Source of the DNA: Rhytidiadelphus loreus
Lineage: Eukaryota > Streptophyta > Bryopsida > Hypnales > Hylocomiaceae
Reading direction: 5' to 3'
Length of the DNA stretch: 64,000 bases
Assembly: GCA_947034895.1 (NCBI GenBank)
Contig: OX344764.1
Span: 43,257,348-43,321,347, forward strand
In this document: positions 11,830 to 63,003 of the stretch, in pieces
How positions within the stretch are numbered: position 1 is the stretch's first letter
How the letters are laid out: every line of letters begins with the position of its first letter
The notes under the pieces: model-generated
Seen by the model: only the letters and a program-made list of their open reading frames with translations
Database searches by the model: none
Told to the model about the DNA's origin: nothing
Made by a program: the position numbers and the translations under genes

Positions 11830-12895
11830 ATCAGTGCGCCCGCTCTGAACCTTTTTGATGCCTCCAAAGTTGCGTTCGTTATTGGTGCCTTTTTCAATTC
11901 AGAGCGGGCGGCCTGAACTGAATCGTGAGGTCCACATTGTGCCGGCAATGAGTTCAGGGTGGGCGCCCTAAACCTTTTTTTCGTAGACGTGGACTTAGTC
12001 AGTTTTCGGTCCAAAATAGGTTTAGGGCGCCCGCCCTGATTTGGATTTCCGTGGCCACGGACTCGCCAATTTGTAAGGACCCAGTTCAGAGCGGGCGCCC
12101 TAAACCTATTTTTCACCGACGTGGACTTAGTCAGTTTACGGTCCGATTCAGTTCAGAGCGCCCACCCTAATTTGGATTTCCGTGGCCACGGTCTCACCAA
12201 TCTGTAAGGACCCAGTTCAGAGCGGGCGCCCTAAACCTATTTTTCGCAGACGTGGACTTAGTCAGTTTTCGGTCCGATTCAATTCAGAGCGCCCACCTTG
12301 ATTTGGATTTCCGTGGCCACGGTCTCGCCAATCTGTAAGGACCCAGTTCAAAGCGGGCGCCTTAAACCTATTTTTCGCAGACGTGGACTTAGTGAGTTTT
12401 CGGTCCGATTCAGTTCAGAGCGCCCACCTTGATTTGGATTTCCGTGTCCACGGACTCGCCAATCTGTAAGGACCCAGTTCAGAGCAGGCGCCCTAAACCT
12501 ATTTTTCGCAGACGTGGACTTAGTTAGTTTTCGGTCCGATTCAGTTCAGAGCGCCCACCCTGATTTGGATTTCCGTGGCCACGGTCTCGCCAATCTATAA
12601 GGACCCAGTTCAGAGCGGGCGCCCTAAACCATTTTTCCGCAGACGTGGATTTAGTCACAATTCTGTTCGATTCAGTTCAGAGCGCCCGCTCTGATTTGGA
12701 TTTCCCTGGCCACGGTCTCGCCCATCGGTAACCTGGATCCAGTTCAGAGAGTTCGCTCTGAACTGAATTGGGGAGACCAAAGACCCGACAACTTTCTTGG
12801 AAACAATTGTGAGTGGGCACTTCAAGCATTGATCCTGTTTATCTTGTGTGACACGACCGAGTCTAGTTTTGTTCAGGGCGGGCGCTCTGATCTGT
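11830..12895. repeat. 131-bp tandem array built of 20-22-bp palindromes
   Basis: About 16 imperfect palindromes of the type GTTCAGAGCG-GG-CGCTCTGAAC occur about every 65 bases (for example 11,894, 12,017, 12,084, 12,151, 12,214, 12,281, 12,347, 12,414, 12,478, 12,543, 12,608, 12,674, 12,740 and 12,873). Two alternating versions, with a GG or a CC centre, make a unit of 130-133 bp. Each unit also carries a second palindrome, CCGTGGCCACGG. The array sits directly upstream of the element 1 transposase. Coding potential across it is a by-product of the repeat. Confidence 0.85.
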
Positions 12896-42365: not shown

Positions 42366-45208
42366 TCTTCAATCGGAATTGTACGCAGACAAACTACCAT
42401 TGATAACGTCAATCTGAGCAGACGATATCTTAACGACACACTCAATTGTGTCCTTCTTCACCCTAGACTTCCAAGCCGTCACCAATGAATTTGTTTCTTC
42501 CCAAATTGGGTTCTGGGTCTCATCCACTTTCCAACGCAATCCTTTAGTGGAATCCCACCCAGTATAGTATTCTTGAACTGTTCGCTCGCGTGACGTGCGC
42601 CGGAAGTATTGAATCAATACACAGTTAGGATGATCGGGGTTTGCAAAAGGATCAGACAAGGCTCGAGCAATCCATATCGGCTTTGCATCTCCATTCGCTG
42701 GCCGAACAGCCACGAAGTACCCTTCAAAAACATCACGGGCCACACGAAAAGATGGTAATGGACGATTGCGGAGTTGCCCTACGAAAGCATCATCTTCAGC
42801 AAACTCCTCACGCACCTCACCATCGTCATCAAGTTCATCCTCCTCTGTCGTCTCCACGCGAGTAGAAGGCCAAAAGCCGTCCTTCAACACAGCTGACGGT
42901 TCAATTGGATCCTTCAAGGACGCATTCACCGCCCGCCAATAGAACACTAAGTGTTCAAATCTTCTCCGGTATTCTCCACTACCATCCTCATTGCACAATG
43001 CCTCCCAATACTTGATGAAGCCTGATAACCCTTTGTAGATCTCATCCAAACTTCGCATTGGGAGATGGACTATAGGCACTGGCTCTCCTCGAGGCCAAAG
43101 ACTACGTCCTTCAATGTCCTCTCGCCATAATTTGATCCCTCCACCTTCCTCAGGGAGCCAATCACTATCAGTGCAATAGTGCTTGTACTTCATAACCGGA
43201 ACCCCTACGGAGTTCAGATAAAACTTGAATTGTTGTGCCTTCGTATGGCCAACAAGTGCCTCCTCTCCATCCAAAATGGAACCTTCTATGAAGGCTTTAA
43301 AATCTGGCACCTCCTCAATAAGGTGAGGAATTGTAGGTACAGAATCCACATCCATGAAGGACTTCATGAGAGATGGAATGGTAGGGAAGTTTTCTTTTTT
43401 CAACTGCATACTCCACCTCCCAAACAAGGCGTCTATGTCATCATGCGTGTGCCCAACCAACATGAAACTAACGTAGACCTCACGGAAGACCTTTTTAGCA
43501 ACAAGAAGGGACCAGAACGCAAACACAAATCTATTCTTGTTGTCTCCCGTGGCGTTGTCCATTTGCACATTTAGAACCGGAGGAAGAGAAGTGGGAAGAA
43601 TTAGAACTTCGGGTTGTGGACGAAGCGAAGATTTGCAAACATCTGATCCTTGTAACACAGCACGGAATAGAGGAGCGGAGCCGGATCCAGCAAACAATTC
43701 CCGCGAGGAATACTTTGGTGGAAGCTCAAGATCTCGAAAGAGTTTTGCTAACGACCCTACCGTGTAGTTTGAGTCGTGAAGGAAAATGTCTAAACCATAA
43801 TGAGCATAACGCACATCCCCGTGTCCATGGGCAATCATACCTGTCACAGAAACTAGTAACTTCATGAGCCCATCCAGTTGCTTACTTTTGTGAGAGAACA
43901 CAGGGGATGCCGTTTTTGCATGATCCATTTTGTCATGCATGATTGTCAAGCATTCGTGAGGATACGTGCTTGACTTGTAGCGATTTGCGTAATATTGATC
44001 TCGATGTGCTCGAGCCTTCGCCAGATGCTTGCCTAATAGATGAGTCCACTTCCTTTGTAAACCATGAACGGCGGTCCTCCTCAAAGTTTGTAGTTGATCA
44101 CACTTAGAGCATCTAGCGAAATTGACCCCCGGCTTTTTGGCACTGAATTCAGGAAAGTTCAGTTTCCTAATCTTATTCACATTAGAAGCTGAAACTTCTT
44201 TAAGTCCGAACATAGCATTTGCTGCATTGACCTCATGAATAGTTTCCTTCCATGTGAAAGTAGCTGGCAAGATCATGGACACCTTCTTTTCTCCAGATGG
44301 AAGAGTGAACGTGCGATGTGGCATGTGATCCGCCGACTTATCAAGTAGGCACTTCAACGTCGCGGTGGCTTGTACAGTATGTCTCTTAGGTTTCTATGTA
44401 CCGAAGTTTCCATGAGGTTGAGCTTGATCACCTCTCGCAACGAATCCTTGGAAACGATGGAATGTTGTCTCCGATACACCAGCAATATGTCGCCATGCCG
44501 CCAAACAAACATCAATTCCTTCGATAGTGACCACTCTCTTCCCGTGGGCATCACGATGGACTTGACGATGAACGTCTAGTTTCATGTGGTACCGAAACTC
44601 GAACGTTGAGTTGTGGTACATGCATTCACGGAAAGCCCGAATCTTTTCCCTTGGAAAAGGTTGAATGCAATTGCTGGAGCAGCAAGTTTTGCTCGACACC
44701 GAATTGATTGACTCTTGAGAGAGCAAGTCCCTGGCCTTCACACACGTTTCCGGACGAGGATTCCTGACAGAGGTTGTATATGGTCTTGAGCTTGTAGAAG
44801 AAGTTTGTGCACGACTAGCTTCCCGACGATTGTAATCGTCACGAAGTTCATGATCGCGAAGACTTGATCCATTCAAGAACACACGTTCGATAGGCCAAGC
44901 GCGGAGAGAATACCTCCAATCCACTGGAACATCTTCAGGACGCAGCGATTTAGAGATGTGAACCGCGACAAGAGAATCTCCGAGGGGGCCATCAGAACCA
45001 AGGACAAGGTCGGAGTTCACATTGTGGCAAAGCCCCTCCGCTACCGGCAAACCATCCACATTGTGAAGGATGACCACCTACGTCATCCAAAGCCTGCGAG
45101 GGATACCCTCACAGTCCGGAATGTGGACAGTTTCCTCTGGATCATTGTGAATCTTGCCTTCATTGGAGGAGTACTCTGGCACCACCATCATTCCGTTCTC
45201 CATTACGT
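42366..45208 (-). pseudogene. Element 2 DUF7869-type transposase (two nonsense codons)
   Basis: One long exon after an acceptor (ctcttacag|ACGTAATGG, exon from 45,208); first Met codon at 45,201-45,203. Order: acidic N-terminus, Cys-containing helical part (CCSSNCIQPFPREKI, about 44,660), GIDVCLAAWRHIAG, ADHMPHRTFTLPSGEK, zinc-type FARCSKCDQL (about 44,100), IMHDKMDHAKT (about 43,930), HGHGDVRYAHYGLDI, QMDNATGDNKNRF (about 43,550), GHTHDDIDALFGRWS (about 43,430), then a C-terminal module with YYTGWDSTKGLRWKVDE. The D/DN/GHTHxDxD set matches DUF7869, read as an RNase-H-like transposase. In-frame TAG codons at 45,078-45,080 and 44,394-44,396 are the only breaks I see; the remaining 660 codons are open. 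It is closer to element 3 than to element 1. Confidence 0.8.
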
Positions 45209-45294: not shown

Positions 45295-46129
45295 TTCAAC
45301 TCGGCCCAAGTTGAATGACCAGACAATAATGAATCCATACAAACCATTGAATAATAAAGTATCAGGTCCCAATTACAAACACAATTTCCTGTACAGAAGA
45401 AGTCAATCAACACCGGGTTTCACTTGAAAAAGTACTAACAACAACCATAAAACATTTGTACTCTAGATTTTCAAATACATTAAAAAATTAATAATATTAA
45501 ACATTTATATTGTGACCATTCAGTCGTGTACCTCTGTGTATCAATGTTCTCAATTATTAGTTCATATTAAAAGATGCATGTGAAATTAATTATGAATTCA
45601 GGGTTCAACTCGCATCGAGTTAAAAACTCCTGATAGGATTAAATAGTTCGTAGGCACATTAATCGTTAACTGAAAAGTTTAAATAGGAATTTATATGGTC
45701 ACCATGATATTAGGAAAAAATAAATTCATTCGGATATGATACGAGTTCCATCCATAGAATCTTCATCAAATAAGTATTTAAAAAAAATAACAATTACCAT
45801 TGACCATCATTGCTTCACATTATATAGGACAGCCTTTTAACTCGAGTCGAGATAAAAGACAACAGCTCATTATTCTATATCAAGGATTTACAACGAAGAC
45901 CAAACCGAACGCTGAATGTTATCTATTCAACTCGAGCCGAGTTGAATAATAGGTAAACAGTGGTAATTTGTTTCTACATTAAAAAAAATTAACATGAAAA
46001 TATTTTCAGGGGAGGATATATTCAACTCGAGACGAGTTGAACAGTATACACAGTTATTCTTTACTGTGACTGTGGATATGTTGTTAACTCGAGTCGAGTT
46101 GAATTCCAGATAACTGGAGTCCAGTTGAT
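45295..46129. repeat. Seven palindromes TTCAACTCG-N3-CGAGTTGAA upstream of transposase 2
   Basis: Sites at 45,295-45,315 (centre GCC), 45,604-45,624 (CAT), 45,836-45,856 (AGT), 45,926-45,946 (AGC), 46,021-46,041 (AGA), 46,083-46,103 (AGT) and a weak one at about 46,109-46,129. Arms of 9 bp are conserved; the 3-nt centre varies. They lie in the non-coding 5' side of the transposase exon, probably intron or leader. Confidence 0.85.
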
Positions 46130-46159
46130 TTTTCGGGTTCAAATTGTTTGATTCACATT

Positions 46160-47080
46160 AAATAATCATTCTTCCGGAAAACCCGGAGCAATTACCGAAG
46201 GACTGTAGAGAACTCTGTGAGTATTACGTGAAGTCCACAGAACACACAATGATAAGGATTGCAACCATACAATGCAAATGCAGGAATTTTTCAGTGCAAT
46301 GACCATTTACAGGCTTCGTCACAGTATTCCGAAACCGTAGAGTTCAGTCAAGCATTGCGAAACAAGGGTGTGATACGATGCGTAGAAAACTGTGAGAAGG
46401 ATTGGAAAAAATCAAGGAGAATAAAAGAACTTCTACGTTGCAATCTCCCATTCCGACACCAGGCCAGAGCACTGAAAAACTAAAATGTTCAATCACGCAA
46501 CGCGAAACCTGTGGGTGGTACAATGCATTCACTTCTTCATCAGAAATGCTATCTTATTCCTGACCTGAGAATGAACAGCCGTTAAGTCAAACCCCATACA
46601 CTACTGTGTCAATAAGAACTACAGAAATGTCCGACAATCAACAAAATAAAAGGAGACGTGAGAACAAGGCAGTGAACCTCGATGACCGGCGTGAAGAATA
46701 CTAGGTGGAGACACAAATGCAAAACTGAAAAATGGCACGGAAAAATTTCGCTGTGGAGGAGAGGCAGCATCGCACTTGGGCGGGAGATCCTCAGCGGGAA
46801 AACTTGGATTCCATTTGAAACGGCTACCGCTGGAAGTCGCGGGCCAAATTTGGAGAGGAATATCTTTTCCCTATAAGACGCTGATGAATAGTGCCGGAAA
46901 GTAAACGCATTCCTTGTTTAGGATCTGTCTATTTCACGTAGACTACCATTAGGAAAAGCGACTGTTGAATCCTTTTCAGAATGCGAGTTTAGTGCTTTTT
47001 GACCTTACGGAGTTCCGAAAATGCTGGTCTTTTTATTAATTGATGATCTTAGGGTTTAGGGTTCTGGGTTCTGGTTCTTC
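46160..47080 (-). other. Probable leader or promoter region of element 2 transposase
   Basis: GC-moderate sequence ending at a telobox-like TTAGGGTTTAGGGTTCTGGG (about 47,049). No protein recognised. Its position and telobox resemble the leaders at 11.3 and 52.1 kb. Confidence 0.3.
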
Positions 47081-49110
47081 GATTGAAAGTCTCCATAATT
47101 ATGAATACACATGTTTTTGGTATAGAAAAATCGTAACATAGACTTTGTAGCAATTTTTTGATATTCATGCAAATATTTTGGAGAATTGAAATGATCTAAG
47201 AGACTTAAAAAATGGTGAACTCTTGGAATTTGTATATGAATGAACGAAAACAATTTGGAAGAAAAAGAATATCCTAAAGATTTAGGATTGTTGGAATCAT
47301 TTGATTGTGGATCATATACGTACGTGACAATTATACATAAATAGTGAATTATAAGTATTCCACAGTCTATTTAAGCTTCACATTTTTTTCATAGTCAACA
47401 GATTTTCAGGTATTGAACATCCTCATATTACTTTGAAAGAGCCATGATCCTTTATACTTTTCCTTCTTTTTCATATTAATATGATAGAATGTGATAGAAT
47501 GTAGAGTACTTGGAGTAACTTAAAACATAAGTGATAATTTTCTTAAATCATGTTTGATTTCTATTTAGACTTCAATTTTTTATGCTCAATCCAATCCTGA
47601 AAGTACCCTATAGCAAAGGTCTTTAGATGGTTTTTAACTTCTACTAATTGTATTTTTTCTTCTTCCCCATATGCATTTGTTGGAATTGAAAAATGCAAGC
47701 ACTTCAGAATACAGAGCATCATAGGTCTTTTAAAGAAAGTTTTTTCATGTCTCTGTACTCTTCAATTTCCTTGATTTCAATAGAATTATTGAAACATATA
47801 TGGGTATACAGAAATATAACCCTAAACCATGCCTTATACTCATTCATTTTCACTACAAGAGAGAGGTGTGTGTTAAGTATAGTCCTAGAGATAAAAGTTG
47901 AATCAGTGACCTTTTGAGGGGATTTTCAGTAAGAATTTACAAGATACTTGTGACTTTTGTTGTAAACAATTGTGTGATAATCAAATAATTGAATTATTTA
48001 GGTATGTGAGTCTAGTATTTGAAAACTCCTTATTTAGGTATGTGAGTCTAGTATTTCTACGTTATAGAATGCAAAAAAGAGAATTTAAAAGTTTAGGGTA
48101 TTCCAAATACTTTAATCACTACATTAACCTATAATACCGAATTAAAATATTTGAGGTTCATGGAAGAATCATACTATACATGTACTTTTAAAATGTAGAA
48201 CGACAACAATATACTATAAAATTAGTCATTGCAGATATGAAATGCTTTGAAAAGAAAAATCATGTTGTGAAATTTATGTTCTTTCAATTGATGGCAATTC
48301 CATTATTGGAAGACTAAAAACAATGGAAGCACTCACACAAAATTTATATGATTGCTCATGAATACCTACCAATAGTTACTTGGAATACATTACTAGGCCA
48401 TGCTTTTAAATAATCCTCATTAAGCTTTCACTAACATAAATGTAGCACTTGAGTTGAATGAGTGTACCCTAAACCCGATATTAAATGTAGCACTTGAGTT
48501 GAATGAGTGTTTGGAAAACCCCATTATGATGTACTTCATGTGTCATTTATATTGAGGCACACTTCAATTCCTTTTAAGAAATACAATGAAAATCAATCGA
48601 AAGGTTGAATGTGAAACCTTTACAGAGTCTACGGATTTATATTTCCATAAAATGTATGATTCTTAATATTTCACATATAGTCATGACTATTGTGAAGGTA
48701 TGACAAAACTCAATTTTTCAATTTTATGATTATGACGTTAAGCATCCATAAACGTTTCGTATCCCTATCATAGTTAACAGGATTTTTTCTAATGCTTTTG
48801 AATACTCTCGAATGTTCATTTCTTTCCCTCTTAAGAGTACCTAGTACTAAAGTGTATTAATAATGGAAGAGACAAAATGTAAGATTAAAAATGCGAATTA
48901 TAGTGCTATTCAATTACACCAAGTAATTATTGAATAAAAAGTGTGTTTAAAATCAGTAATCTTAGAGTGCTACATTTCAAACCATCACAGAACTAGTTGT
49001 TTGGTGTAATTCATCTAACGAAGATTTAAATTCTAGCGGTTTTGATGGTGAATTTATTATGGTCATGGTATTAGCATATATTATGTGTAACATTATTTGT
49101 TTTAGAGAAC
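47081..49110. other. AT-rich interior, no gene recognised
   Basis: No supported frame. A direct repeat AAATGTAGCACTTGAGTTGA occurs at about 48,438 and 48,484. Nothing else is visible. Confidence 0.4.
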
Positions 49111-49113
49111 ACT

Positions 49114-49495
49114 AACTGCGCCTCGGTTATCAGAGGTGCCTCCGGTTATGGAGTTCTTTTGCATTCCCTAACCTAAAAAAAATGTACAATTGTATGTGCC
49201 GGACCCGTTGAACTCCAAACTCTTCTGGATAATTGGTGGTAGGGAACACTAATTCAGCCGCCATTATCAGGGGTCCATCTTGTTAGGGAGTGCGAAAGCA
49301 CTCCCTAACCCAAAAAAAATGTATAATTCTGTGTGCTGGACCCATTCAACTCCAAATTCTTTTGGAGAAATTGTGGTAGGGAACACTAATTCGGCCTCCA
49401 TTATTGGGGGTCCATCCGCTTAGGGAGTGCGAAAGCACTCTCTAAGCCAAAAAAAATGTATAATTCTGTGTGCTGGACCCATTCAACTCCAATTA
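49114..49495. repeat. Three tandem repeats carrying GAAA-loop hairpins
   Basis: A unit of about 125-135 bases (GGGAACACTAATTCGGCC ... TAATTCTGTGTGCTGGACCC) occurs three times, the first copy decayed. The second and third copies carry AGGGAGTGC-GAAA-GCACTCCCT hairpins at 49,282-49,309 (12-bp perfect stem) and 49,418-49,447 (13-bp stem with one mismatch). Confidence 0.75.
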
Positions 49496-50015
49496 TTCAA
49501 AAAGTCAAGAATCCCAAAAAATTACTTATTTAATCAATTGAATTACATTGTACGGTAAATTAATAATTATTTAGAACACAAAGTTCGCCTCGTACTGTAA
49601 TGTCCCACAGATTACAAAGTCATGAATTCAACGTAAAAAGAAAATGGAAAACATATGATGCAAGTTTCAATTATTCCTAAACTACAAAATCCCCCCCAAA
49701 TACTTAATTAATTGATTGACGTTGCACGTGAAATTAAAAATGAGAACTCAAAGCTGGCCATGTACTTCAATGTCCCCCCAATTATTCATGAATTCCATTA
49801 AAAATAAATGGGAAACATATGGTGCAAGTTCCAATTATAAATAAATTCAAGAATCCAAAAAAAATATTGTAGTTAGTCAATTGAATGACGTTGTACGTGA
49901 AATTCAAAATTAGAACACAAAGTTGGCGCTGTACTTTAATGCCCTCCAAAATATAAAGTTATGAAATATGCTTAAAAAAAAAATGGGAAACATATGGTGC
50001 AAGTTCCAATTTTCG
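49491..50015. repeat. Three tandem copies of a 170-178-bp unit
   Basis: Units begin CAATTAT near 49,491, 49,669 and 49,842 and each ends with GGGAAACATATGGTGCAAGT or a close variant. AT-rich, non-coding. Confidence 0.8.
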
Positions 50016-51248
50016 TGTTTTCAATTTATTGGAAAATGCTCTAAATTGAACAAAATGTGAAAATTTTGATAAAATGTAACGATTTTTTAGAAATTGTAAC
50101 CGTACAAATTCAAACTAAACTTGCTAGAGATTGCCTAGGAAAAGAAAGCACAACAATTTCACTTAATATGGAATGAAAGATTCTAACGTTTGATTATGAG
50201 GGTGCTAAAATTGCAAAAAGGAATTGAAGTCTTACTTGCAAGTCAAATCTAAAAAAGTTGATGACAAAAAATATATGAGGTTAACGGGCCTAACTTTAAT
50301 AACCCAAATCAATTTACGACTTCTCCCAATTCACTCTACAACGTCTTGAAATGAACTTAGAATGTGATTTTTTCTCGAAGATCTAGTGTATTTGAGGCTC
50401 ATTTTCAAAACCTCTTAACACTTAGTTTACGGAACTCAAGAAGAACATTTAAAAAATATAAACTACTTAAAATAGCAATTTGGCTAGGATTTAGGTAACT
50501 AAAAAGTTTTGGAAACAACATATTTTCGTGCCTCGGGCATTTAGGGGTTAATACTCATTAGTACACTAGTACATTTATACTATTTTGTTTTGTCCTTTTT
50601 ACCTACATTAAAAAAAAAGTATGTAGAATGTTTTTTCAAAAAAATAAGTCTTCAGTTTAAATAAATTATTTATGACATATAAATACACTACGTAAGATTT
50701 ATAGGATTCAGATCCTTGTTCTTCTTTCATTCCTGCTTCGATGAAAGTCATCTTAATTTTTGGTGATACTTTTTGAAAGTCATCCTAATTTTTGGTCTTA
50801 TCCATCGGTTGGATTTGGTGTTACTAGAATATGTACGTTTCTAAAATTAAAAATGTGGAAGTATGTCAAGTGGTCAATTTGCATTGACTTTAGTTCAAAA
50901 CTAGATGTGCAAAAACAAGGTCAAAGATGTAAAGGTCACAAAAATTTCATAAAACCACAACATAAATAGAACCTTATTTAGAATCCATTTCAACAAGTTT
51001 TACTCAAGAAATGATAAAATTTTACTTGTAATTCAATTTCAAAGGAATTTTGAAATTTCTATTTCAAAATTTATAGAAAAAAATTGGTGATAGCATTAGT
51101 ACATCTAACCGTACGGATAGAATTTAAAAATCAAAATGTATAGCTTCCATTTGTATACGAATTCGAAAATATTCTTCCAAATTGTAGTTCACAATGTTTT
51201 TTCTCGAATTGTCAATTTTGGAGATGAATCCAGACGTTTAGGGCTTAA
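50016..51248. mobile_element. AT-rich DNA with two TTAA-element ends
   Basis: GGCATTTAGGGG followed by TTAA (50,548-50,551) is a right end of the CCCC-type TTAA family. At the other side 50,950-51,244 matches the 9,857 family in reverse, ending CGTTTAGGGC then TTAA (51,245-51,248). Neither partner end is found. No gene. Confidence 0.45.
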
Positions 51249-51369
51249 AGATCACCCCATCTCCATTTTCCATCTAAAAATAGGGGCGGTTTAAAGAAGT
51301 TGGGCACATTTAGAGCATGTTACCATTTGAAGGCTAAATGCGCTGGAGACAACAATCTTCAATCTAGAC

Positions 51370-52318
51370 GCTCCATTGCCATGGAGGGCCAAGATTGAAC
51401 GACCCTGCCCCGAAACTGGAGTCTGCCTGCAGACTGGGTTTTGGTGATCTAGGGTTTTCTACTTTTTTTCTGAAGTTTTACCTTGTCGATCTTTTGCGGA
51501 GTTCTGCGACGTGTGGGCAGTACTTTCTGGCGTCTTGCAAGTTGTGCGGCTTGAGGGTAGTAGTTTCCGGAGTCTTGGCAGGAGTTTGCGCCGTTTCCAT
51601 GCTTGTCTACGACGTGGGGTAGGAGTTTGCGGCGTGTGAGTTCTCAGCGTGTGAGTCCGCGGCGTGTGAATTTGCGGCGTAGGAGTTTTGCCAAGTTCTT
51701 GTGTGTTCTCCGTGTGACTGCTGGTTCAGTTTGTTCTCCGGTTCTTGTTTTTCGGTATAGGGTTCTTCAGTATCGCTTCTGGGTTCTTGTTCTTGAATTC
51801 AGGGTTTAGGTTTTTGTTTCTGTCAGTGACCTTGTTGATGTGCGCTGGTGTGAGTTCGGTGGTGTGAGTTGGCGGGTGTGAGTTGGCGGGTGTGAGTGCG
51901 CTGCTTTGAGTTCGGTGCTGTGAGTTCGGGTGTGAGTGCGGTGGTGTGAGTGAATACCGATTCTATTTTTGTGAGTCCGTCTTCCTTCTGCGATTTTCTG
52001 CGGCAATTGTGCTCGGGTGCCATTCTTTGTTGATTTGCTGTTTCTGCTCGGATTCGGCTACGTTTTGGAGCTTGTGGAAGCGACGCTTTAGAATTTCAGG
52101 TATGCTCCTTCCAGTTCATGGATTTAGGGTTTAGGATTTTCGATTTCAGTTTCGATATTCAGTGGAATTCAATTTACATAATGTGTTGCACTTGTTGCAT
52201 TTGTGGTTGCATTGTGTAATTTAGGTTCTGTGGATCATTTGTGCATTGGTAAGAATGAAATCAATATCTCGTGATTTCAGTGATTCCTCATACCATTTTT
52301 GTTTGAGGAAGATGTAAG
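51370..52318 (+). other. Leader region of ParB/methyltransferase-like copy A with GTGTGAGTT minisatellite
   Basis: GC rises again. GTGTGAGTTGGCGG-type units of about 14 bases repeat at 51,620-51,690 and 51,845-51,955. A telobox (TTTAGGGTTTAGG) lies at about 52,121. No convincing protein; probably promoter and untranslated leader of the gene that follows. Confidence 0.4.
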
Positions 52319-52847
52319 TTCAACTCGACGTATGTCAGTTCAACTCGATGGAAGCCAAAATAGGCTAAAGCGAACTACAAAAACCAGACTCGTACACTGA
52401 AATTCAACTCGAGCCGAGTTGAATTGCACGATCCCTGTATATCACAGCATAAAAAATGTCAGTAATTTGGGAAAAATCCGCTTCAGGTCCTCAGAATGCA
52501 AAAATAACAAGAATCAAAGAAGGTCAAAAGCAAAAAAAGAAGATCTTAATCACAAAATTCAATTCGGCTCGAGTTAAATTACCAAATATCGAGATGAAAA
52601 CCAAAATGAAACATTAATCCACTATTGTTATTTCAACTCGAGTCGAGTTGATCCGCAAAAACTCATATTCGAAATTAAAAAATAACAATGAACTCACACT
52701 GCATGAGCCTCTCAGACAAATTCAACTCGGCTCGAGTTGAAGTCTTGGAAATACAGAACCAGATAATGAGAACCAATGTAGAGAAAACCAAAAAGAGGAC
52801 AACATATTATCATCCTGAGGCACATATTCAACTTGATTCGAGTTAAA
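52319..52847. repeat. Palindrome cluster in the leader of copy A
   Basis: Half sites TTCAACTCG at 52,319 and 52,339, then full sites at 52,403-52,423 (centre AGC), 52,558-52,578 (GCT), 52,632-52,652 (AGT), 52,721-52,741 (GCT) and 52,827-52,847 (ATT). Same arms as upstream of transposase 2. Confidence 0.85.
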
Positions 52848-54355
52848 AATGCTTGACCTGATAATATTTTCGTTTGAAAATAATGCAGATATGGAGGGCC
52901 AGAGATCGAAACTCTAAGCCACATACAAGCACTACGACATCCCCCCAGAACAAGTCGATGACCTTATCGATGACACGATTCTGGAAGAGTGCTGGGAGTG
53001 GCAAGATCCCCATGAAGTCGAGTACTGGACCGTCATCTTAGTTCCGATGACCAATCACCTGGCATTCAGGACGAAGTTCAGGAAGTCTGATGCCACCCTC
53101 CCTGTTTCTTTGACGGAGTCAATAATGGAGTTCAGTAGCGGACCGGGTGGGGTTATATTCGTGTCCTGCGAGACGGTGGACCCCGAGCAGGAGAAACCAT
53201 ATATATTCTCCTACAAGGTCGATGCCCGCAAGACAATTTTTAGCATCTCCGAGTATCTTCGTAGTCTAATGAACACTGATTACGAAGACCTCATAGCCCC
53301 AATTCAAACCGCCATCGACCAGAAGAAGTGGGTGGCAAATAACGGCGCGCCCCTAGCACCCAAAACTCTGCTGTCCCGCCTGAACCATCTCAAGCTGGAT
53401 TTCGAGAGAGGTCACGTGCTCTTGATGCAAAAGAAGAAGGACATGAGACCTACTTCCGTGGTCAGGGACTATAGCAGTCAGAACCCAGGTACTAGTTCTC
53501 TGGCAATCGGGACACCAGGAACGGGGCGGAGTCACACGAGGCTTAAGCAAACTGAGAAGTTTGCGAGAGGAAATCCATCACCGACCCCTCCGTCGGGAAG
53601 CAAGAGAGCCGGCGCCAAGGGTACCGCCAAGGCAACCGCCAAAGCCGGAACCTCTCATCAACCTGATGAGAGTATGGTTTCGGACCTCATGGACATTCTG
53701 AAGGACCTGGGAGGGGACATCAAGGAAATAGACTTTGAGGACTCCAACCGGACATATGAGGCATACTGGAAGGAGTGCACTAACTCGTATATGCCGGCAA
53801 TCGGAATGAAGTTCGTCATTCCGCTTGAGCAGTTGGAGACACCCCCCGAGAACTTGAACATCCGGAGCCTTAAGGAGCAGGGAATAATGAGGTCTCTGAA
53901 CTTCTTGTTGAACATGCCCGACCCCAACAAGAAGATGACGTTGTGCGTCATGCCCCAGAACCTGAGGAGCAAGCCGCAGACCTTTGAAGAAATCAAAGAT
54001 ATGCGTTTCTGGATGGTCAATGGGCAGCACACCATGGCTGCATCGAAGCGCATGCAGGTGATGCCCGCGATTAAAGCGAAGGCGGAGAAGTTTAAAACAT
54101 GGGAGTGCTTCGTAGTTTGGAACAAGAACGACCATGTGATCAGGAAAATCTCCGCGTACTACAATCGGGTGAATCATTTTCAGAACTTCATGCCGACGTG
54201 GGCCACCAACATCATGGGAGCCCGATTTGTCTGGGAGAAGATGGGTTGCCCTCCTTCTGACAAAGAGCCCACCGAGTTGGGCCGGGCTGCAGATAGGCCT
54301 CGCAAGACCATAAAGGATATGAACAACCAGAAGCGGTTTAGGGTAAGCAATGCAA

Positions 54356-54532
54356 TTCAACTCGGGTCGAGTTGAATTCTTCCTTTGTTAATAATGAATG
54401 ATTTATTTATCTCATGAACGCATTCATTTCCGTTCGAGTGATTTGAATATTGAACTCCAGATGAATCCACTATTTGCTGAATACCTTTTTCATATTGCCC
54501 TCGCGCTTGAATTCAACTCGGGTCGAGTTGAT
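54356..54532. repeat. Two palindromes in intron 1 of copy A
   Basis: 54,356-54,376 and 54,512-54,532, both with centre GGT. The first starts 13 bases inside the donor, the second about 35 bases before the acceptor. Confidence 0.9.
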
Positions 54533-55947
54533 TGAACCTTGACTGATGGTATTTCACTAAATGTATCTGCAAGATTTTACGGACGCAGTGAGGTTGAGGT
54601 TTGCTATGATTGATGTCAAGAAGTTCCGAGGAGCATTAAGCAGAAAGAAGGAGAAGGACTTGGACATCCATAACGAACTGAAGATCATCACTGCTTCCAA
54701 GGAGGTGTATGACCTTTGGAGCGAGGTCATATCCATGAATTCCCAGGGGTAGCTCACAGATCCCGATTCCTTGCTAAAGTTCAAGCAGACGAAGGGATGG
54801 GATCAAGAACGTGATGGGGTCATGTCCCGGGAGTTCTTCAAGTGGCTTGGGAACTGCAGTGAGGGGGATCTCAAGAAGTTGGCCTTGCATCTCCTCGGTA
54901 GGACCCCGAATAGAGAGTTGGCGCACCCGAAGGTGACGATGAAGAAGTCAACCGGGGTTCTCGAGGACTGCTACACAGCCAAGGAGTGGCTCGAGCAGTG
55001 CAAGAGGAAGCAGATCATCAGGAGGCAGATCTTCTTTCTGAGGAAAAGTTTGAGCCTGTACAATAACGAAGGCAGCTTTCGGAGGGACAAGTGGAAGGAT
55101 TTCAAGCGGATGTACAATGTCACGAGGGCCACGAAGAACACCCTCATTTCAGGTCCGCCGGATGAATTCTACTCCCTTGCAAAAATGCCTTGCAACAAGA
55201 ATAAGAGCATCGAAGAGCTCTCATCGATGGCTGCCCAGTTTTTCAAGATTTTTATGGGCAACAAGGGCAAGTTTGCCAAGCCCGAGGGGAGAGCCTTCTA
55301 TCGGCCGTATAATATGAGTGATGACGAGCTCGTGGGTGGGACACCAATGTATGGGAGGAGGAAGTCGGCCAGAGTATCAAATTGGCAGTGATGGATTTCC
55401 GTAATATCCCTGGATCCATCAATCGGGAGAGGACGAGGGACTCCGATCTGTACTTCGAGCCCTTTATGGGTGTTCTCTCGATGATGGACCAGCCGACGGT
55501 GAAGGACCCGAGTGTCTGGTTGTGGATCTGCGGGGACATGGACCTTCAGGTCGATCTGAGGTCGCACATCTGGACTTCAGCGTACAGCGAGGTGTACACC
55601 GTACATTTTTTTGAGTACGTTCCTTCAGTTTGGGAGCGGATTCGCGATGCACCAGAAAAATCAAATAAGGCAAAGGAGTCCGTGCACATGATCTTCTTGA
55701 TCAAGAAGGGGGTTAGGCTGGGCAAGAAGATTCCCAAGAAATTTGAGGCCCTCCCAGACGGACGGTATTCCAGATCAAGGTCCACAAACGACCTAGATTA
55801 CAGAATCTACAACACCGAATTGCGCATGGATTTTTATTTGCAGGTGTTGAGTCTGTTTGCTGGGCCTCAGGAGAATGTTCTCTCCATTTTCGCTGGGGGG
55901 AAAATCATTTGTGCCGCGTTGGTGAGTTCCTATGGACAGTCCTGATA

Positions 55948-56013
55948 TTTATCTCGATGCGAGTTGAATTGCGTGTTGCTTTGTGAATCCTTTTCATCTC
56001 GAGTCGAGTTGAA
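55948..56013. repeat. Two palindromes in intron 2 of copy A
   Basis: 55,948-55,968 (centre ATG) and 55,993-56,013 (centre AGT), inside the 129-base intron. Confidence 0.9.
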
Positions 56014-56202
56014 GGTCTTCTGACCTCATTGTCTGCCTGATCATTTCAGATGCTGTCACTGGAGCACTACATCATTGGAGACTCCAAGTACAATGAGAAG
56101 TTCTTGAAGTTGGCTTTAGCTTCCGAGTACCTAGACAAGGATGACTTTTTTGATGCAAGTTACCTCGTGGATCAAAGAGTTCATCCGAGAAAGTTAAGCA
56201 AG

Positions 56203-56446
56203 GAACATCATATTCATTAAAATGGGAGTTTTCCAATGAAATGGGAGTTCTACGAGCTTCATAAACTAAGAATGCAAGAACAATTTCATACCCACCACCA
56301 CAAGAGAATGAGCCGTTAATAGACAAACATAGACAATCTGTCTAGAAGTAAAATCATAATGACAATGTATTGAGTATTATGGAAGGTAGAACATGATGCT
56401 ATCTGTATATACTATGAATGCGATAAGATGATGCTAATTCCACACG
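56203..56446. mobile_element. Element X2 left terminus, inserted in copy A
   Basis: Copy A aligns with copy B up to AAGCAAGG at 56,202, then switches to AACATCATATTCATTAAAAT, the terminus also seen at 41,578. A second AATGGGAG motif follows at about 56,240. The junction marks insertion of X2 into copy A. Confidence 0.65.
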
Positions 56447-58808
56447 CTATGACTGTGACCTACTCCTCAATATTTGCATTGCCTTCAATATTTCTGGCCC
56501 TCGACTATATCCTATACTCCTAGCAGATAATTGTTGCGCAATCTCTCGCCGTTGTTTCTTTAAGGACCTCAACTCCCAAGCATCCCACATAGGAGTCCTA
56601 TAATGAAGAGGAGGCAATCCATCATTTCTTTTGCATTGTCGTTTTACGATATCCAAAGATGATAGACGAGGTTGTGCGTCTTCAGCTATTGCATTCCGCT
56701 TCTCCAACTCTATACTCTTTACGCCTTTGGAAGTGTTACCCGTGATGGCAATAGATTTAGGCATTGAATTCTCCACTTCAGCTATTGCATTCCGTTTCTC
56801 CAATGGTATACTCTTCATGCCTTTGGAAGTGTTGTCCAACATGGCAACAGATATAGGCATTGAATCCTCCACCTACCAAAACCAAGAAAATAAGAGATTC
56901 ATTATCCACAATGATTACAATGCGAACCATAAATACAGACACAATTGCAGAAACATTTCACTCAATCACTGATAACACACCTCCATGAAGGCCACCACAC
57001 CCGCTTCTTCACTGTAGAGCTTCCTCTGCGTTTCCAAATTGACAACAGGCCGATCCCTTGTTGTTTGTGAACGACATTTTAGAGGAGATGGAGAGTGCAT
57101 TACTTTGGGGCACTTCCCTCCATTGGGAGGACTATCAACAACGCCATCGTCTATGCCCATCATTGAAAAATCCATTGTCGACTGTGCAGTGGCCTCGGAG
57201 TACATGACATGCCGAATCACTGGGGCCACAGCATTTCTAAACTCCTGGGCACAACACAAAAATAATCGAGTGCAAATATGAATGATGAATTTCATTTTAT
57301 TTTATTTGACAATAATAATTACATTTTAAGGTGTACCCTCTTACCACAACTACGTTGTCTACAAATTTCTAGATTTCCTATAGACATCGTTGATCGTTCC
57401 GGAGGCGGACAAGGACGGAAATAGATGTCTTCTTTGGTGAGCTCCTTGCGCTTCGTTGCGCGCGTCGTGCGTAGTTCCATCAAAGGAATGACACGCCCGA
57501 AATCATCCACTTTCCGTTTAGTATGAAGTCTATTGGAGACCGCGAGCGCCCTCTGAAGTTCCCTGTACATGGATTGGTCGAGATGATGCTTGAGGTGAAT
57601 CCCCCCAACAGCATTGTCTCTACGGAAAGAAAAAAATTCCCACGGCCTCTCTACATGCAGTCTCCTAATCCAAGGCAGGAGTTCAAATATGAGAACCTTG
57701 TCTCTCGACCCCTGTCCGACAAAACACCACGAGTCTAGGAGCACTACGTTCGAGGGATCATTCATGAAGTGTTTCTCGGGGCTGTTGTCTACTATTATAG
57801 TATTCTCCGGCGTGAAGATGGACCCCTTGAGTTTGTACAACCTCTCCAATGGCTTGAAAAACAGGTCCTTGCACGATCCCTTCAACCTGTAGTTCTTTAG
57901 CATGCCATTCCCGTCTCTCGATTTCATGACGGTACATTGTTCTTGGCCGAGGACACCAAAGGGGGGCGTCAGGCCGTGGAAGAGAAAATCAACAGCGAGC
58001 TGGGCGTACCATTGATCCATGGAGCTCCAAATTACGACGTTCGCGAAGGAGGTCAACTCCTGCACGAACCTTCTTACATGGGGTCGGAAAGTGACCCTTT
58101 CCATCGGGAAGATGAACCTCTCCGCTTTCGGGACTACTTCATAAAGAGAGCACACCCTCCTTTCTTTTATGTGATATCTCATATCATCACAAAAGCAAAG
58201 AAGACCATTCAGATCCAGAACGACATTCAGCCACTTCTTATTGAATCTGGATGTGAACGGACTACGAATATGCACATCCGCCCCAATATCACCTACGACT
58301 CCCTCACTAGTCCCCTGCTCATAAGGAACAGAGACACATCCAAAATTAAACCGGGTCAAACTCAATTGCGAAGGGTACACCGAAGTGGGGCATGTCAGAC
58401 CGGAAAACACATCGATGAGGCGAACAAAAAATCAATATTCTGAAGTTCGAGCCGCGGTCAACCAACACAACATCCATAGCACTCAAACATGGCAAAGTAC
58501 ATACCGCATCTTCCAGCGAAACATTTCGAGGAGACATTTGAGGATCTTTTTGTTCACCGCAAGGAACATCATCTATCACCACCTCCGCGACTTTGTGAAT
58601 GACTTCGAGAACCTCCACAGCATCGGGGATAACTTCGACAACCTCTGCGACGTGTTGAGGGAGAGGATCATCGTGAACCTGATCAGCCGCAGGATGCGAT
58701 GGAGACGCCTTTGGTGGAGAATCATCCACAACAGGCCTAAGACATAGAGCACCAAAGTCGAGACATTCAGACCCTGCGACTGTGGAAATTGAACACGACA
58801 ATACTGCG
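56447..58808 (-). CDS. FCP1/NLI-interacting-factor-like protein of element X2
   Basis: Multi-exon minus-strand gene. Exons seen: about 58,505-58,808 (after ttaccgcag; acidic, V/E/P-rich), 57,345-58,400 (HAD domain), 56,981-57,244 (after tgcccag; 88 codons) and 56,447-56,872 (after ttggtag; ends TGA). The HAD exon has VVLDLNGLLCF (motif I; the second Asp of DxD is Asn, as in a plant subgroup of FCP1-like proteins), FRPHVRRFVQEL, VVIWSSMDQWYAQ (motif II), KPLERLYKLKG and TIIVDNSPEKHFMNDPSNVV (late motif), all in FCP1/SCP order. The last exon holds an internal duplication of about 32 residues (EDSMPISVAMLDNTSKG / ENSMPKSIAITGNTSKG). The junction near 58,440 between the first two exons is not in frame with the splice I see, so a break or a missed exon is possible. 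It lies next to copy B on the same strand. Confidence 0.6.
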
Positions 58809-58939
58809 GTAAGAAAAAATATATATTACAATGTCTCACGATGGGAGAAAATGATACAAGATGCGTGGGGTCGGCCTATCCTAGTACTAACTAAAAGTGT
58901 CAGTGCTAGCGATACTAATATACGCACAGCGGAAGGAGC

Positions 58940-58960
58940 TTCAACTCGAGCCGAGTTGAA
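58940..58960. repeat. Single palindrome between FCP1-like gene and copy B
   Basis: Perfect TTCAACTCG-AGC-CGAGTTGAA in the short spacer downstream of the copy B stop. Confidence 0.9.
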
Positions 58961-60068
58961 ATACATGCTAAGAGAGTCACGAGGAACAACCTGGAGAAGC
59001 ATTAGTCACAGGGTCCTGTGACTGCTTCACATGTACCCCTTCCGCCGGCATCCTGTCCACTACATCCTCGGTCTCAGGATCGAATGGGATGTCGGTTGAG
59101 TCCTCTGCCATGTCCGGCTGACCTTCATCCTCGACCTCTTGATCCTACTGTGCCGCATCATCTTCTGCGTCCGTAGCGGTGGAGGATGGAGTTGGCGTTG
59201 TCATCACACCCTCGGAAGCCGTCGTATTATGTGACGGATTCAGAGACAACGTCGGCTGCTTCCTTGCACTATCGGCTGAATTGTGAGGCCGGTTGCCGAG
59301 CATGAGCCGGGAAGATGTCTCAGCCGGAGACATTTGTTGCAATGGCGTAACCGCCAGCAGAAGCTCCGGGTGGACTTGCCTGACGGTTGAAACCATCAAC
59401 TGCGGGAGGTTGGCGACGATGTCCTTAAAGAACTGCATGTTATCCTCTCTGGCCCTTCTGTTCTCCTCCCGCATCTCCTCCCTCGCAATTCGGTTTTCCT
59501 CCCGTATCTCATCATATACCGATTTTTGGTTATCAGGGACTGATGGAGGCTCGGGATTCTTCCTCTTCTTGGACATGCGCCTACTGGATACCGGGGTCCC
59601 CTCCGGCTGAGAGGAAAGAGGGGTGGTATGCCTCTGCGCCGAGGTGTCCGATGAACCTCTCATGTCGCTAGAGGCGGGGACGCCCTCCGACAACCCCGTC
59701 CCCTGGGAAAGCAAATCACCAATTATTTCGGCTGCCGGATCCTTCCATTCCTCTTCCCTCTCCATGTCGTCGCCTTCATCCTCACCAAGGTTGATGGCGA
59801 CATCTCTTCGAGATCCCTGGATGGCGGCTTCTTTGGCATCCGTCATCCTCTCCTTGCCTTTGGCAGAACTGGAAGCACCCTTGCTAAACCTCCTTGGATG
59901 AAGTCTTTGATCCACGAGGTAACTTGAATCAAGGAAGTCATCCTTGTCAAGGTACTCGGATGCCAACGCCAACTACAGGAACTTCGGATTGTATTTGGAG
60001 TCGCCAATGATGTAGTGCTCCAAGGACAGCATCTGTTAATTATCACGAAACGATGAGGTCAAAGAACT

Positions 60069-60135
60069 TTCAACTCGACTCGAGATGAAAGGGATTTACA
60101 CAGCAACAAGGCAATTCAACTCGCATCGAGTTAAA
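60069..60135. repeat. Two palindromes in the second intron of copy B
   Basis: 60,069-60,089 (centre ACT) and 60,115-60,135 (centre CAT), in the 130-base intron. Same number and arrangement as in copy A, with different centres. Confidence 0.9.
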
Positions 60136-61552
60136 TGATCAAACTGTACATAGGAAACTTACCAATCCCGCGCATATTATTTTCCCCCCAGCGAAAATGG
60201 AGAGAATATTCTCCTGAGGCCCAGCAAACAGACTCAACACCTGCAAATAAAAATCCATGCGCAATTCGGTGTTGTAGATTCTGTAATCCAAGTCGTTAGT
60301 TGACCTTGACCTGGAATACCGTCCGTCTGGGAGGGCCTCAAATTTCTTGGGAATCTTCTTGCTCAGCCTTACCCCCTTCTTGATCAAGAAGATCATGTGC
60401 ACGGACTCCTTTGCCTTATTTGATTTTTCTGGTGCATTGCGAATCCGCTTCCAAATTGAAGGAACGTACTCAGCAAAATGTACTGTGTACGCTTCACCGT
60501 ACGTTGAGGTCCGGATGTGCGACCTGAGATCGACCTGAAGGTCCATGTCCCCGCAGATCCACAACCATACATTCGGGTCCTTGACCGTGGGCTGGTCCAT
60601 CGTCGAGAGAATATCCATAAAGGGCTCGAAGTAGAGATCTTTGTCCTTTGTCCTCTCCCTATTGATGGTTCCAGGGATGTTGCGAAAGTCCATCACTGCC
60701 AACTTCAGACTTTGGCCGACTTCCTCCTCCCACACATTTGTATCCCGGCCCACCAGCTTGTCGTCCTTCATGTTATAAGGCTGATAGAAGGCTCTCCCCT
60801 CGGGCTTGACGAACTTGCCCTTGCTGCCTATGAAAATCTTGAAGAACTGAGCGGCCATCGGGGAGAGCTCTTCAATGCTCTTATTTTTGTTACAAGGCAT
60901 TTTCGCCAGGGAGTAGAATTCATCAGGCGGACCAGAAATAAGAGTGTTCTTCGTGGCCTTCGTTACATTGTACACCCTCTTGAAATCCTTCCACTTGTCT
61001 CTGCGAAAACTGCCCTCGTTATTGTACAGACTCAAACTTTTTCTAAGGAAAAAGATCTGCCTCCGGATGATCTGTTTCCTCTTGCACCGCTCGAGCCACT
61101 CCTTGGCTGTGTAGCAGTCCTCCAGAACCCCGGTGGACTTCTTCATCGTCACTTTCGGATGCGCCAAGTCTCTGTTCGGGGTCCTGTCGAGGAGATGCAA
61201 AGCCAACCTTTTCAAATCCCCCTTGCTGCAGTTCCCAAGCCACTTGAAAAACTCCCGGGACATGACCCCATCTCGCTCTTGATCCCAGCCCTTGGTCTGC
61301 CTGAACTTCAGCAAGGTGTCGGGATCTGTGAGTTGCCCTTGCGAATTCATGGATATGACCTCGCTCCAAAGGTCATACACTTTCTTTGACGCGGTGATGA
61401 TCTTGAGTTCGTTATGGATGTCGAGGTCCTTTTCCTTCTTCCTGCTCAATGCTCCTTGGGACTTCTTCACATCTATCATAGCGAACCTGAGTCTCACTAC
61501 GTCCGTGAAATCCTACATGTTCATCCAGAGAAATTCCATCAGTGAGGGATCA

Positions 61553-61727
61553 ATCAACTCGAGCCGAGTTGAATGCTAGCACGAGGTTGATAAGTCATAT
61601 ATTTATGGCAGCTAGGAATTTCAACATCAATTCTGGAGGCAAACGAATCAACTGAATTGATTTACACAGGATTTTAATAATTCAAACATTATGATCACAG
61701 GATAAGTTCAACTCGACCCGAGTTGAA
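61553..61727. repeat. Two palindromes in the first intron of copy B
   Basis: 61,553-61,573 (centre AGC) and 61,707-61,727 (centre ACC). On the gene strand the latter begins 13 bases inside the donor, the same offset as in copy A. Confidence 0.9.
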
Positions 61728-62333
61728 TTGCATGGCTTACCCTAAACCGCTTCTGGTTATTCATGTCCTTGATTGACTTGCGAGGCCTATCTGCGGCCCT
61801 GCCCAACTCTGTGGGCTCTTTGTGAGGAGGAGGGCAACCCATCTTCTCCCAGACAAAACGGGCTCCCATGATGTTGGTGGCCCACGTCGGCATGAAATTT
61901 TGGAAATGATTCACCCGGTTGTAGTAAGCAGAGATTTTCCTAATGACGTGATCGTCCTTGTTCCACACCACGAAACACTCCCACGACTTAAACTTTTCTG
62001 CCTTCGTTTTTATTGCGGGCATCCGCTGCATGCGTTTCGATGCAACTACGGTGTGTTGCCCATTCACCATCCAGAAGTGCATATCTTTGATTTCTTCAAA
62101 GGTCTGCGGCTTGCTCCTCAGGTTCTGGGGCATGACGCACAACGTCATCTTCTTGTCGGGGTCAGGCATGTTTAACAAGAAATTCAGAGACCTCATAATT
62201 CCCTGCTCCTCAAGGCTTCGGATATTCAAGTTCTCGGGTGGTGTCTCCAACTGCTTTAGTGGAATGACGAATTTCATTCCGATTGCCGGCACGTACGAGT
62301 CAATGCACTCTTTCCAGTAAGCCTCGTATAACA

Positions 62334-62500
62334 CTATATTCAATATTTTGAGAGGTTTGGAGTCTCTCAAAATAATATTGTCCATTTAGACTATATACAA
62401 TGAATTATAATGTTAGCCAGTTTAGGCGGGCAAATACTAAATTTGCTAGTTGTAATGTGCAATTTCCATTAAAATGAGAGTCCCGTGAGTGATCGAATGT
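62334..62500. mobile_element. Element 3 left terminus, inserted in copy B
   Basis: Copy B is homologous to copy A up to TACGAG (complement at 62,327-62,332) and then changes to ACTATATTCAATATTTTGAG, a diverged version of the element 2 and X2 termini. A stem TTTTGAGAG/CTCTCAAAA and AAAATAATATTGTCCATTT follow, as in element 2. Confidence 0.6.
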
Positions 62501-62801: not shown

Positions 62802-63003
62802 CTTTTCTTCAATCGTATTACATTTTCAAATTGACTTTAGACAGATATTAAGCTAGTAAAATAACATGAAATATCCTGAAAAGAGTATGTGCAAACTTGA
62901 AATAGTAAATATATTTATATAAATTTGAAGATTAAAACATAATCAATATCCAATATATCAATTTAACATACTATTACTAATTTCACGATAATATTCCACA
63001 AAA

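What the first reader, a model, noticed from the sequence alone, without database searches (positions are those of the whole stretch)
45295..61727. A 21-bp palindrome family confined to introns and leaders of one transposon family
Seen: about 20 full sites of TTCAACTCG-N3-CGAGTTGAA at 45.3-46.1, 52.4-52.8, 54.36, 54.51, 55.95, 55.99, 58.94, 60.07, 60.12, 61.55 and 61.71 kb. Both 9-bp arms are conserved, while the central 3 nt take at least nine different values (AGT, AGC, AGA, GGT, GCT, ACT, ACC, CAT, ATG). Each of the four analysed introns of the ParB/methyltransferase-like gene (two introns, two copies) holds exactly two sites, and the first site of intron 1 begins 13 bases after the donor in both copies. 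None was seen in exons. Conserved arms with a free centre are what a dimeric DNA-binding protein site, or an RNA hairpin with a triloop, would give. Pairs near both intron ends could also bring splice sites together in RNA.
Basis: seen in the sequence. Interest (0 to 1): 0.9.

Follow-up and report, generated by a model that had tools for sequence, protein, structure and literature searches.

The report
Element-specific palindromes in transposon introns
A transposon family, probably in a plant-like host, carries a 21-base mirror-image DNA motif in the non-coding parts of its genes; the motif stays the same while the DNA around it drifts and changes on both sides together in distant relatives, which looks like a docking site for a protein that the transposon makes itself.

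Summary
TTCAACTCG-N3-CGAGTTGAA occurs 20 times in the window (up to 3 mismatches; 0.02 expected), only at 45.3-61.7 kb and never in an inferred exon. Each of the four introns holds two sites; the first site of intron 1 starts at intron base 14 in both gene copies. Between the copies the arms are 71/72 identical, against 170/270 for the rest of the introns and 1864/2094 for exons. Homologous exons, read past their donors, encode the palindrome: 6 of 8 usable intron-1 tails lie within one mismatch of a slightly widened consensus, at offsets 11-23; several lineages carry AGCTCG in both arms. A second palindrome family (9-2-9) and a weaker third (9-1-9) accompany other genes at 12-18 kb. The host gene joins a ParB-like domain to a methyltransferase fold lacking the usual DPPY motif; such genes are reported in algal transposons, and the passages I saw name no binding sites. 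Best reading: sites for an element-encoded dimeric DNA-binding protein, probably the ParB-like one, keeping element chromatin active as Arabidopsis VANC proteins do. RNA hairpins near splice sites are not excluded. The genome search did not complete, so no genome-wide test was made.

The parts
45295..46103 (.). Leader cluster of the DUF7869 gene: six palindromes at 45295, 45604, 45836, 45926, 46021, 46083
42369..45077 (-). DUF7869 gene (two ORFs in one frame, 42369-44393 and 44394-45077, separated by a stop codon), candidate transposase, divergent from the ParB/methyltransferase gene
   Evidence: Pfam DUF7869 E 1e-44 on the first ORF; ORF limits
52319..52347 (+). Two exact unpaired half-sites TTCAACTCG, same orientation, 20 bp apart
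52403..52847 (.). Leader cluster of ParB/methyltransferase gene copy 1: five palindromes at 52403, 52558, 52632, 52721, 52827
53047..54342 (+). Copy 1 exon 1 ORF: ParB N-domain fold in its last third
54343..54572 (+). Copy 1 intron 1 (inferred) with palindromes at 54356 and 54512
54573..55921 (+). Copy 1 exon 2: methyltransferase-like; decayed (in-frame stop, frame break)
   Evidence: fold from the copy-2 exon
55922..56049 (+). Copy 1 intron 2 (inferred) with palindromes at 55948 and 55993
58940..58960 (.). Palindrome just downstream of the ParB ORF of copy 2
59145..60024 (-). Copy 2 exon 3 (broken by a stop)
60025..60162 (-). Copy 2 intron 2 (inferred) with palindromes at 60115 and 60069
60163..61512 (-). 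Copy 2 exon 2: methyltransferase-like fold (searched as 60155-61512 or 60142-61512, a few bases into the intron)
61513..61740 (-). Copy 2 intron 1 (inferred) with palindromes at 61707 and 61553
61741..62385 (-). Copy 2 exon 1, truncated at its 5' side
11830..12891 (.). Second palindrome family, TTCAGAGCG-N2-CGCTCTGAA, 16 sites (up to 4 mismatches), mostly in a 131-bp tandem array upstream of another DUF7869 gene (ORFs 13401-16211)
17335..18708 (.). Third, weaker palindrome family, TATCGGCTG-N1-CAGCCGATA, 6 sites (up to 4 mismatches) around a likely exon (about 17475-18121) of an NIF-like phosphatase gene

Best explanation
The palindromes are binding sites for a dimeric, sequence-specific DNA-binding protein made by the transposon family, most likely the ParB/methyltransferase-like protein whose own introns and leader carry them. 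Binding in the non-coding parts of the element (leaders of both genes and the introns) keeps or makes that chromatin active, as Arabidopsis VANC proteins do through their motifs in VANDAL introns and upstream regions. Reader and sites change together, so lineages differ in half-site. Shown: the sites, their location, and their conservation against drift between two copies; by back-translation of proteins, their presence in relatives and symmetric lineage-specific change.
Against: No binding or expression data. Relatives' DNA was not seen; tails are back-translated protein, and the consensus TTYARCTCG was widened after looking at them. The near-fixed offset from the intron-1 donor is more than a DNA site needs. 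Of 18 intron-2 tails of 12 residues or more, 4 (P0005, P0023, P0027, P0045) have 3 or more mismatches and 3 have two; of the 8 intron-1 tails P0054 (3 mismatches) is not beyond shuffles under this consensus (0.058). The second site of P0003 and those of P0067 and P0001 look mixed between arm types. The AGCTCG signatures also hit 4 times in exon residues. The AACTCG group needs 4 changes on the tree and is not clustered beyond chance (96 of 500 shuffles as low). Both gene copies in the window are decayed. The confident part of the exon-1 model is the ParB N-domain, not a DNA-reading domain. Arm changes are unevenly split between the two arms on the gene's strand, which a strand-blind site would not predict, though numbers are small.
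Confidence: 0.5

Rival explanations
1. RNA-level element: each palindrome is a 9-bp triloop hairpin in the pre-mRNA, or pairs with the second site of the same intron; those near the intron ends tune splicing or bind an element-encoded protein, so that splicing of the ParB gene is self-controlled.
For: First site of intron 1 starts at base 11-15 of the intron in 7 of 8 usable homologous tails (23 in the other) and at 14 in both window copies; the second site ends 40 nt before the acceptor in copy 1. First intron-1 site: -13.6 kcal/mol, z -2.60 in copy 1, -10.1, z -0.46 in copy 2; in both intron-2 copies the predicted fold pairs the two sites with each other, z -1.65 and -2.03. On the sense strand six sites have C-to-T changes in the left arm, giving U-G pairs, against three sites with a G-to-A change in the right arm that leaves a C-A mismatch.
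Against: Unpaired arm changes persist: the T-T mismatch at arm position 5 of the second intron-2 site in both copies; an A-C mismatch at arm position 6 in 10 of 16 second-family sites, by my count (array copies are not independent). Dense leader arrays and two lone half-sites. The offset varies widely in intron 2 (10 to 121 among the fitting tails; that call reports one best-scoring site per tail, not always the first). The second intron-1 site does not fold better than shuffles (z 0.41). No Rfam match at the gathering thresholds.
Confidence: 0.25
2. Transposase-binding sites: the DUF7869 protein or an accessory protein binds the palindromes to assemble the transposition complex, like the TnpA subterminal motifs of En/Spm.
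For: Clusters lie in front of the divergent DUF7869 and ParB genes, and element-specific repeats bound by transposition proteins are a known theme (recalled).
Against: Sites also sit deep inside the gene, in both introns. I could assign no terminal inverted repeats or element limits, so closeness to element ends is untested. A second DUF7869 gene, 50% identical, has a different palindrome, which fits either a changed or another reader.
Confidence: 0.13
3. Selfish or mutational palindromic mini-repeats that spread into any non-coding sequence of this element, without a reader.
For: Non-coding distribution with none in inferred exons; known cases such as palindromes in fungal mitochondrial genomes (recalled).
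Against: Arms at single sites are kept while the surrounding intron drifts; the same intron-1 place is occupied in distant homologs; absent from the window's first 45 kb.
Confidence: 0.05
4. Sites of a host transcription factor that the element has captured.
For: Leader clusters look like promoter arrays.
Against: The half-site changes between lineages symmetrically, the motif is absent from the window's first 45 kb, and different elements in one window have different palindromes.
Confidence: 0.07

Closest known systems
VANDAL transposons and their VANC anti-silencing proteins (Arabidopsis; passages of PMC5735166 and PMC10398659)
   Same: Short motif specific to one element family, found in non-coding parts including introns of accessory genes and upstream of the transposase gene; target motif differs between families; one of the three palindrome families here sits in a tandem array.
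   Different: The VANC21 motif YAGTATTAY is a 9-mer repeated in one orientation and linked to tandem repeats; here it is a 21-bp palindrome, irregularly spaced, and found at the same intron place in relatives about 47-65% identical in exon 1. No VANC-like gene was recognised by Pfam; the candidate reader is ParB/methyltransferase-like.
ParB plus methyltransferase accessory gene of Ectocarpus Sola1-1 and of green and red algal transposons (passages of PMC12477816; its references 50 and 51 not seen)
   Same: One protein with a ParB-like and an amino-methyltransferase domain, in a DNA transposon, on the strand opposite to the presumed transposase.
   Different: The passages I saw describe no binding sites or palindromes. 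Here the methyltransferase motif IV place reads DFR (28 of 29 rows; DFM in 1), so methylation is doubtful. Whether DUF7869 is a Sola-type transposase was not tested.
Bacterial ParB-parS, Noc-NBS and KorB-OB (site details recalled)
   Same: Fold of the ParB N-domain; palindromic DNA sites.
   Different: Site sequence and length differ (21 bp with a 3-bp centre); ParA, CTP binding and spreading were not tested.
En/Spm TnpA subterminal motifs (recalled)
   Same: Element-specific repeated short motifs.
   Different: Those lie near the element ends; these lie in leaders and introns, and the element ends are unknown.

Membership tests
VANC-type anti-silencing motif system | Short motif enriched in non-coding regions, introns included, of one element family | tested here: met
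   20 of 20 sites outside inferred exons, all within 45.3-61.7 kb; only the window could be examined
VANC-type anti-silencing motif system | Motif rare elsewhere in the genome | tested here: inconclusive
   Absent from the window's first 45 kb; genome search did not complete
VANC-type anti-silencing motif system | Motifs in tandem repeats | tested here: inconclusive
   Irregular spacing for this palindrome; a 131-bp tandem array for the second family
VANC-type anti-silencing motif system | Encoded VANC protein | tested here: inconclusive
   Pfam scans of selected ORFs showed none; no direct comparison with VANC was made
VANC-type anti-silencing motif system | Binding removes DNA methylation and activates the element | not testable with these tools
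   needs bisulfite sequencing and expression data
ParB-methyltransferase transposon accessory proteins | ParB-like domain | tested here: met
ParB-methyltransferase transposon accessory proteins | Amino-methyltransferase domain | tested here: met
ParB-methyltransferase transposon accessory proteins | Carried by a DNA transposon | tested here: inconclusive
   Two gene copies, each near a DUF7869 gene; element ends and target duplications not found
ParB-parS | parS-type site bound by a CTP-dependent clamp | not testable with these tools
   needs binding and CTPase assays; the site sequence differs from the parS consensus (recalled)
Known structured RNA (Rfam) | Match to an Rfam family at the gathering score | tested here: not met
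   0 matches in the window

The most novel reading that the evidence does not exclude
A eukaryotic counterpart of ParB-parS used by transposons: a ParB/methyltransferase-like protein, probably without methyltransferase activity, loads at palindromic nucleation sites spread through leaders and introns, spreads along the element and marks it as its own, with each lineage evolving a private palindrome (9-3-9, 9-2-9 and perhaps 9-1-9 forms in one window).
Probability: 0.2. Interest if true: 0.9.

Novelty: new variant of a known kind. Interest (0 to 1): 0.72.

Why it matters
[quoted passage not shown] These palindromes are concrete candidate targets, found at the same intron place in relatives 47-65% identical in exon 1 (down to 35% for exon 2), and they make that suggestion directly testable. 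The nearly fixed place beside the intron-1 donor adds an open question about DNA- versus RNA-level action.

Tried and rejected
Motif scans of other collections: viral contigs gave 0 stretches and genome contigs 1, a bacterial MAG with a single site; about 4 exact hits are expected by simple base counting in 257 Gb, so this is chance. Protein-guided scans of viral contigs with the exon-2 alignment and the DUF7869 protein found no relative, so no DNA of relatives could be read. The PDB sequence search with the exon-1 profile hit only an 89-residue chain named JUBO2 (E 0.004) outside the ParB fold match, not followed; the exon-2 profile gave only E 0.87-0.89 hits.

RNA family search: none. Element ends: a self-comparison of the window gave no terminal inverted repeats that I could assign; the 41799-42061 / 62569-62831 repeat looks like a dispersed tRNA-derived element, judged by eye only.

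Considered and dropped: mobile introns or introners (the palindromes lie inside the introns, not at their ends, and the exons are shared by both copies); coding constraint in another frame (the motif occurs in three frames in the tails, by my decoding); gene conversion of 9-bp tracts (judged implausible, not tested). The third palindrome family (6 sites) is not beyond the shuffled control by number: control families reached 7 in 3 shuffles, and AT-rich families in the window itself reach 13; it rests on 4 of 6 sites having one mismatch and on clustering.

Dropped rows: 16 of 45 exon-2 hits gave no tail and are not in the 29. Of 23 exon-1 hits, 12 reach the exon end, by my reading; 4 of those (P0047, P0048, P0049, P0052) have tails of 0-5 residues and were left out of the 8. 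Spacings 0 and 1 also gave 3 and 2 of 29 intron-2 tails with <=1 mismatch, the other spacings tried (2 and 4 to 7) none. The AGCTCG signature set hits 10 of 29 tails against 0.6 in shuffles, but 5 of these are AACTCG tails caught by a shared frame. P0018, P0019 and P0020 were given a type for the tree although they have 2 mismatches. In one search intron 1 was labelled from 54345, two bases after the donor found.

Full report
What is there. The palindrome TTCAACTCG-N3-CGAGTTGAA occurs 20 times in 64 kb with at most 3 mismatches, all between 45295 and 61727, against 0.02 expected: 7 perfect, 8 with one mismatch, 4 with two, 1 with three. Half-sites with at most one mismatch pair 17 times at a spacing of 3 and three times at other spacings up to 60. 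On the gene's strand the left arm varies at positions 3, 5, 6 and 8 and the right arm only at its outer positions 1 and 3. The first 45 kb of the window have none at this threshold; one further place, at 665, needs 4 mismatches.

Where the sites lie. Six sit upstream of a DUF7869 gene on the minus strand (Pfam E 1e-44; its two ORFs share a frame and are separated by a stop), five plus two lone half-sites upstream of the ParB/methyltransferase gene copy 1, two in each of the four introns, and one just after the ORF of copy 2. None of 20 is in an inferred exon; exons are 41% of the region. The introns are inferred from GT/AG ends, from the drop in identity between copies, and from homologs whose ORFs run into the same donor (V-S, that is GTNAGY, in 21 of 29 rows); no RNA data exist here. 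Both gene copies are decayed: copy 1 has an in-frame stop, a frame break and a shifted intron-1 acceptor, and copy 2 has a truncated exon 1 and a stop in exon 3.

Selection on the sites. The two copies were aligned as they stand. Arms: 71 of 72 bases identical. Centres: 11 of 12. Rest of introns: 170 of 270. Exons: 1864 of 2094. Arms against the rest of the introns: Fisher P 2e-11. So the arms, and at single sites the centres too, are held while the intron around them drifts.

Relatives. Exon 2 has 45 protein relatives and exon 1 has 23, from public sequence sets that name no organism here and without Pfam domains. Because many are exon-sized ORFs that run past the donor, their ends show the start of the intron. 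For exon 2, 29 tails could be cut out. With the wider half-site TTYARCTCG, chosen after looking, 11 of 29 fit within one mismatch; of the 18 tails of at least 12 residues, 11 have at most one mismatch, 3 have two and 4 have three or more (P0005, P0023, P0027, P0045). For exon 1, 8 tails were long enough: 6 fit within one mismatch, P0057 with 2, and P0054 with 3, which is not beyond shuffles (0.058); P0054 fits a palindrome with AAGTCG in both arms, by my own decoding. Offsets of the site from the donor: 11, 14, 23, 14, 15, 13, 14, 15; 14 and 14 in the window. In intron 1 no spacing from 0 to 7 other than 3 gives any tail within one mismatch; in intron 2 spacings 0 and 1 give 3 and 2 of 29.

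Lineage-specific arms. Several tails carry AGCTCG in place of AACTCG with the matching change in the other arm (P0009, P0011, P0013, P0025, P0037 in intron 2; P0058 in intron 1); P0011 and P0013 show two sites each, both of this type. P0067, P0001 and the second site of P0003 look mixed. On the exon-2 tree the AGCTCG group (with P0019, a weaker match) needs 2 changes (0 of 500 label shuffles as low), while the AACTCG group needs 4 and is not clustered beyond chance (96 of 500). Symmetric change is expected both for a dimer site and for a hairpin.

Other palindromes in the window. A mechanical search for repeated palindromes finds a second family, TTCAGAGCG-N2-CGCTCTGAA, 16 sites with up to 4 mismatches at 11.8-12.9 kb upstream of a second DUF7869 gene, largely in a 131-bp tandem array, and a third, TATCGGCTG-N1-CAGCCGATA, 6 sites at 17.3-18.7 kb around an NIF-like phosphatase ORF, one of them starting at base 19 after a possible donor. 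The array copies are not independent. The third family does not exceed shuffled controls by number. The first two share TTYA at the outside and CG at the inside of each arm.

How it most likely works. An element-encoded dimer recognises the two arms on duplex DNA. The ParB-like protein is the natural candidate, since ParB relatives bind palindromes (recalled) and its own gene carries the sites, but the DUF7869 protein is not excluded. Sites in leaders of both genes and in the introns suggest control of the element's chromatin or transcription. The closest worked-out case is VANC21, whose motif lies in VANC21 and VANB21 introns and upstream of VANA21, is bound in vivo and in vitro, and leads to loss of methylation (passages of PMC5735166; passages of PMC10398659). 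An RNA-level role is the main rival, because the intron-1 site is so close to a fixed place and because the predicted folds of both intron-2 copies pair the two sites with each other (z -1.65 and -2.03); I give it 0.25.

What is known. [quoted passage not shown] Literature searches with ParB, transposon, palindromic, intron, methyltransferase, algae, DUF7869, Bostrychia and anti-silencing listed no paper on such sites by title or start of abstract. Three of these lists were capped (15 of 163, 8 of 90 and 6 of 26 papers), the library is the open part only, and I read no listed paper beyond passages of three. The host looks plant-like: the best PDB matches of the kinase at 25.3-26.2 kb are 6lba and 6ka4, which I take from recall to be Arabidopsis proteins.

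Limits. No DNA of relatives was read. Element ends are unknown.

Noticed in passing
window 11830-12891: A different palindrome family, TTCAGAGCG-N2-CGCTCTGAA (16 sites), mostly in a 131-bp tandem array upstream of a second DUF7869 gene.
   Followed up: partly
window 17335-18708: A weaker third palindrome family, TATCGGCTG-N1-CAGCCGATA (6 sites), around an NIF-like phosphatase ORF; another NIF-like gene lies at 57.3-58.4 kb between the two ParB gene copies.
   Followed up: partly
window 41799-42061 and 62569-62831: A repeat of about 265 bp (85% identical) lies at the 3' side of both DUF7869 genes; by eye it holds a tRNA-like B box, so it may be a SINE.
   Followed up: no
window 60163-61512 and homologs: The methyltransferase-like domain has DFR (DFM in one) in place of DPPY in 29 of 29 aligned rows, and a lysine in the SAM-motif region in all of them: a conserved but non-canonical, perhaps inactive, enzyme fold.
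   Followed up: partly
window 21024-21208 and 24317-24503, 34440-34613: AT-rich imperfect palindromes with TTGTTGATT cluster just upstream of a tandem TPR-repeat ORF (19856-20998, minus strand) and in two other stretches.
   Followed up: no
window 19673-20999 and 24537-24897: Tandem repeats with offsets of about 102 bp underlie the TPR ORF, with a related block at 24.5-24.9 kb.
   Followed up: no
window 49092-49502: A 137-bp tandem repeat (3 copies, the second and third 77% and 69% identical to the first) in the AT-rich stretch between the two leader clusters.
   Followed up: no
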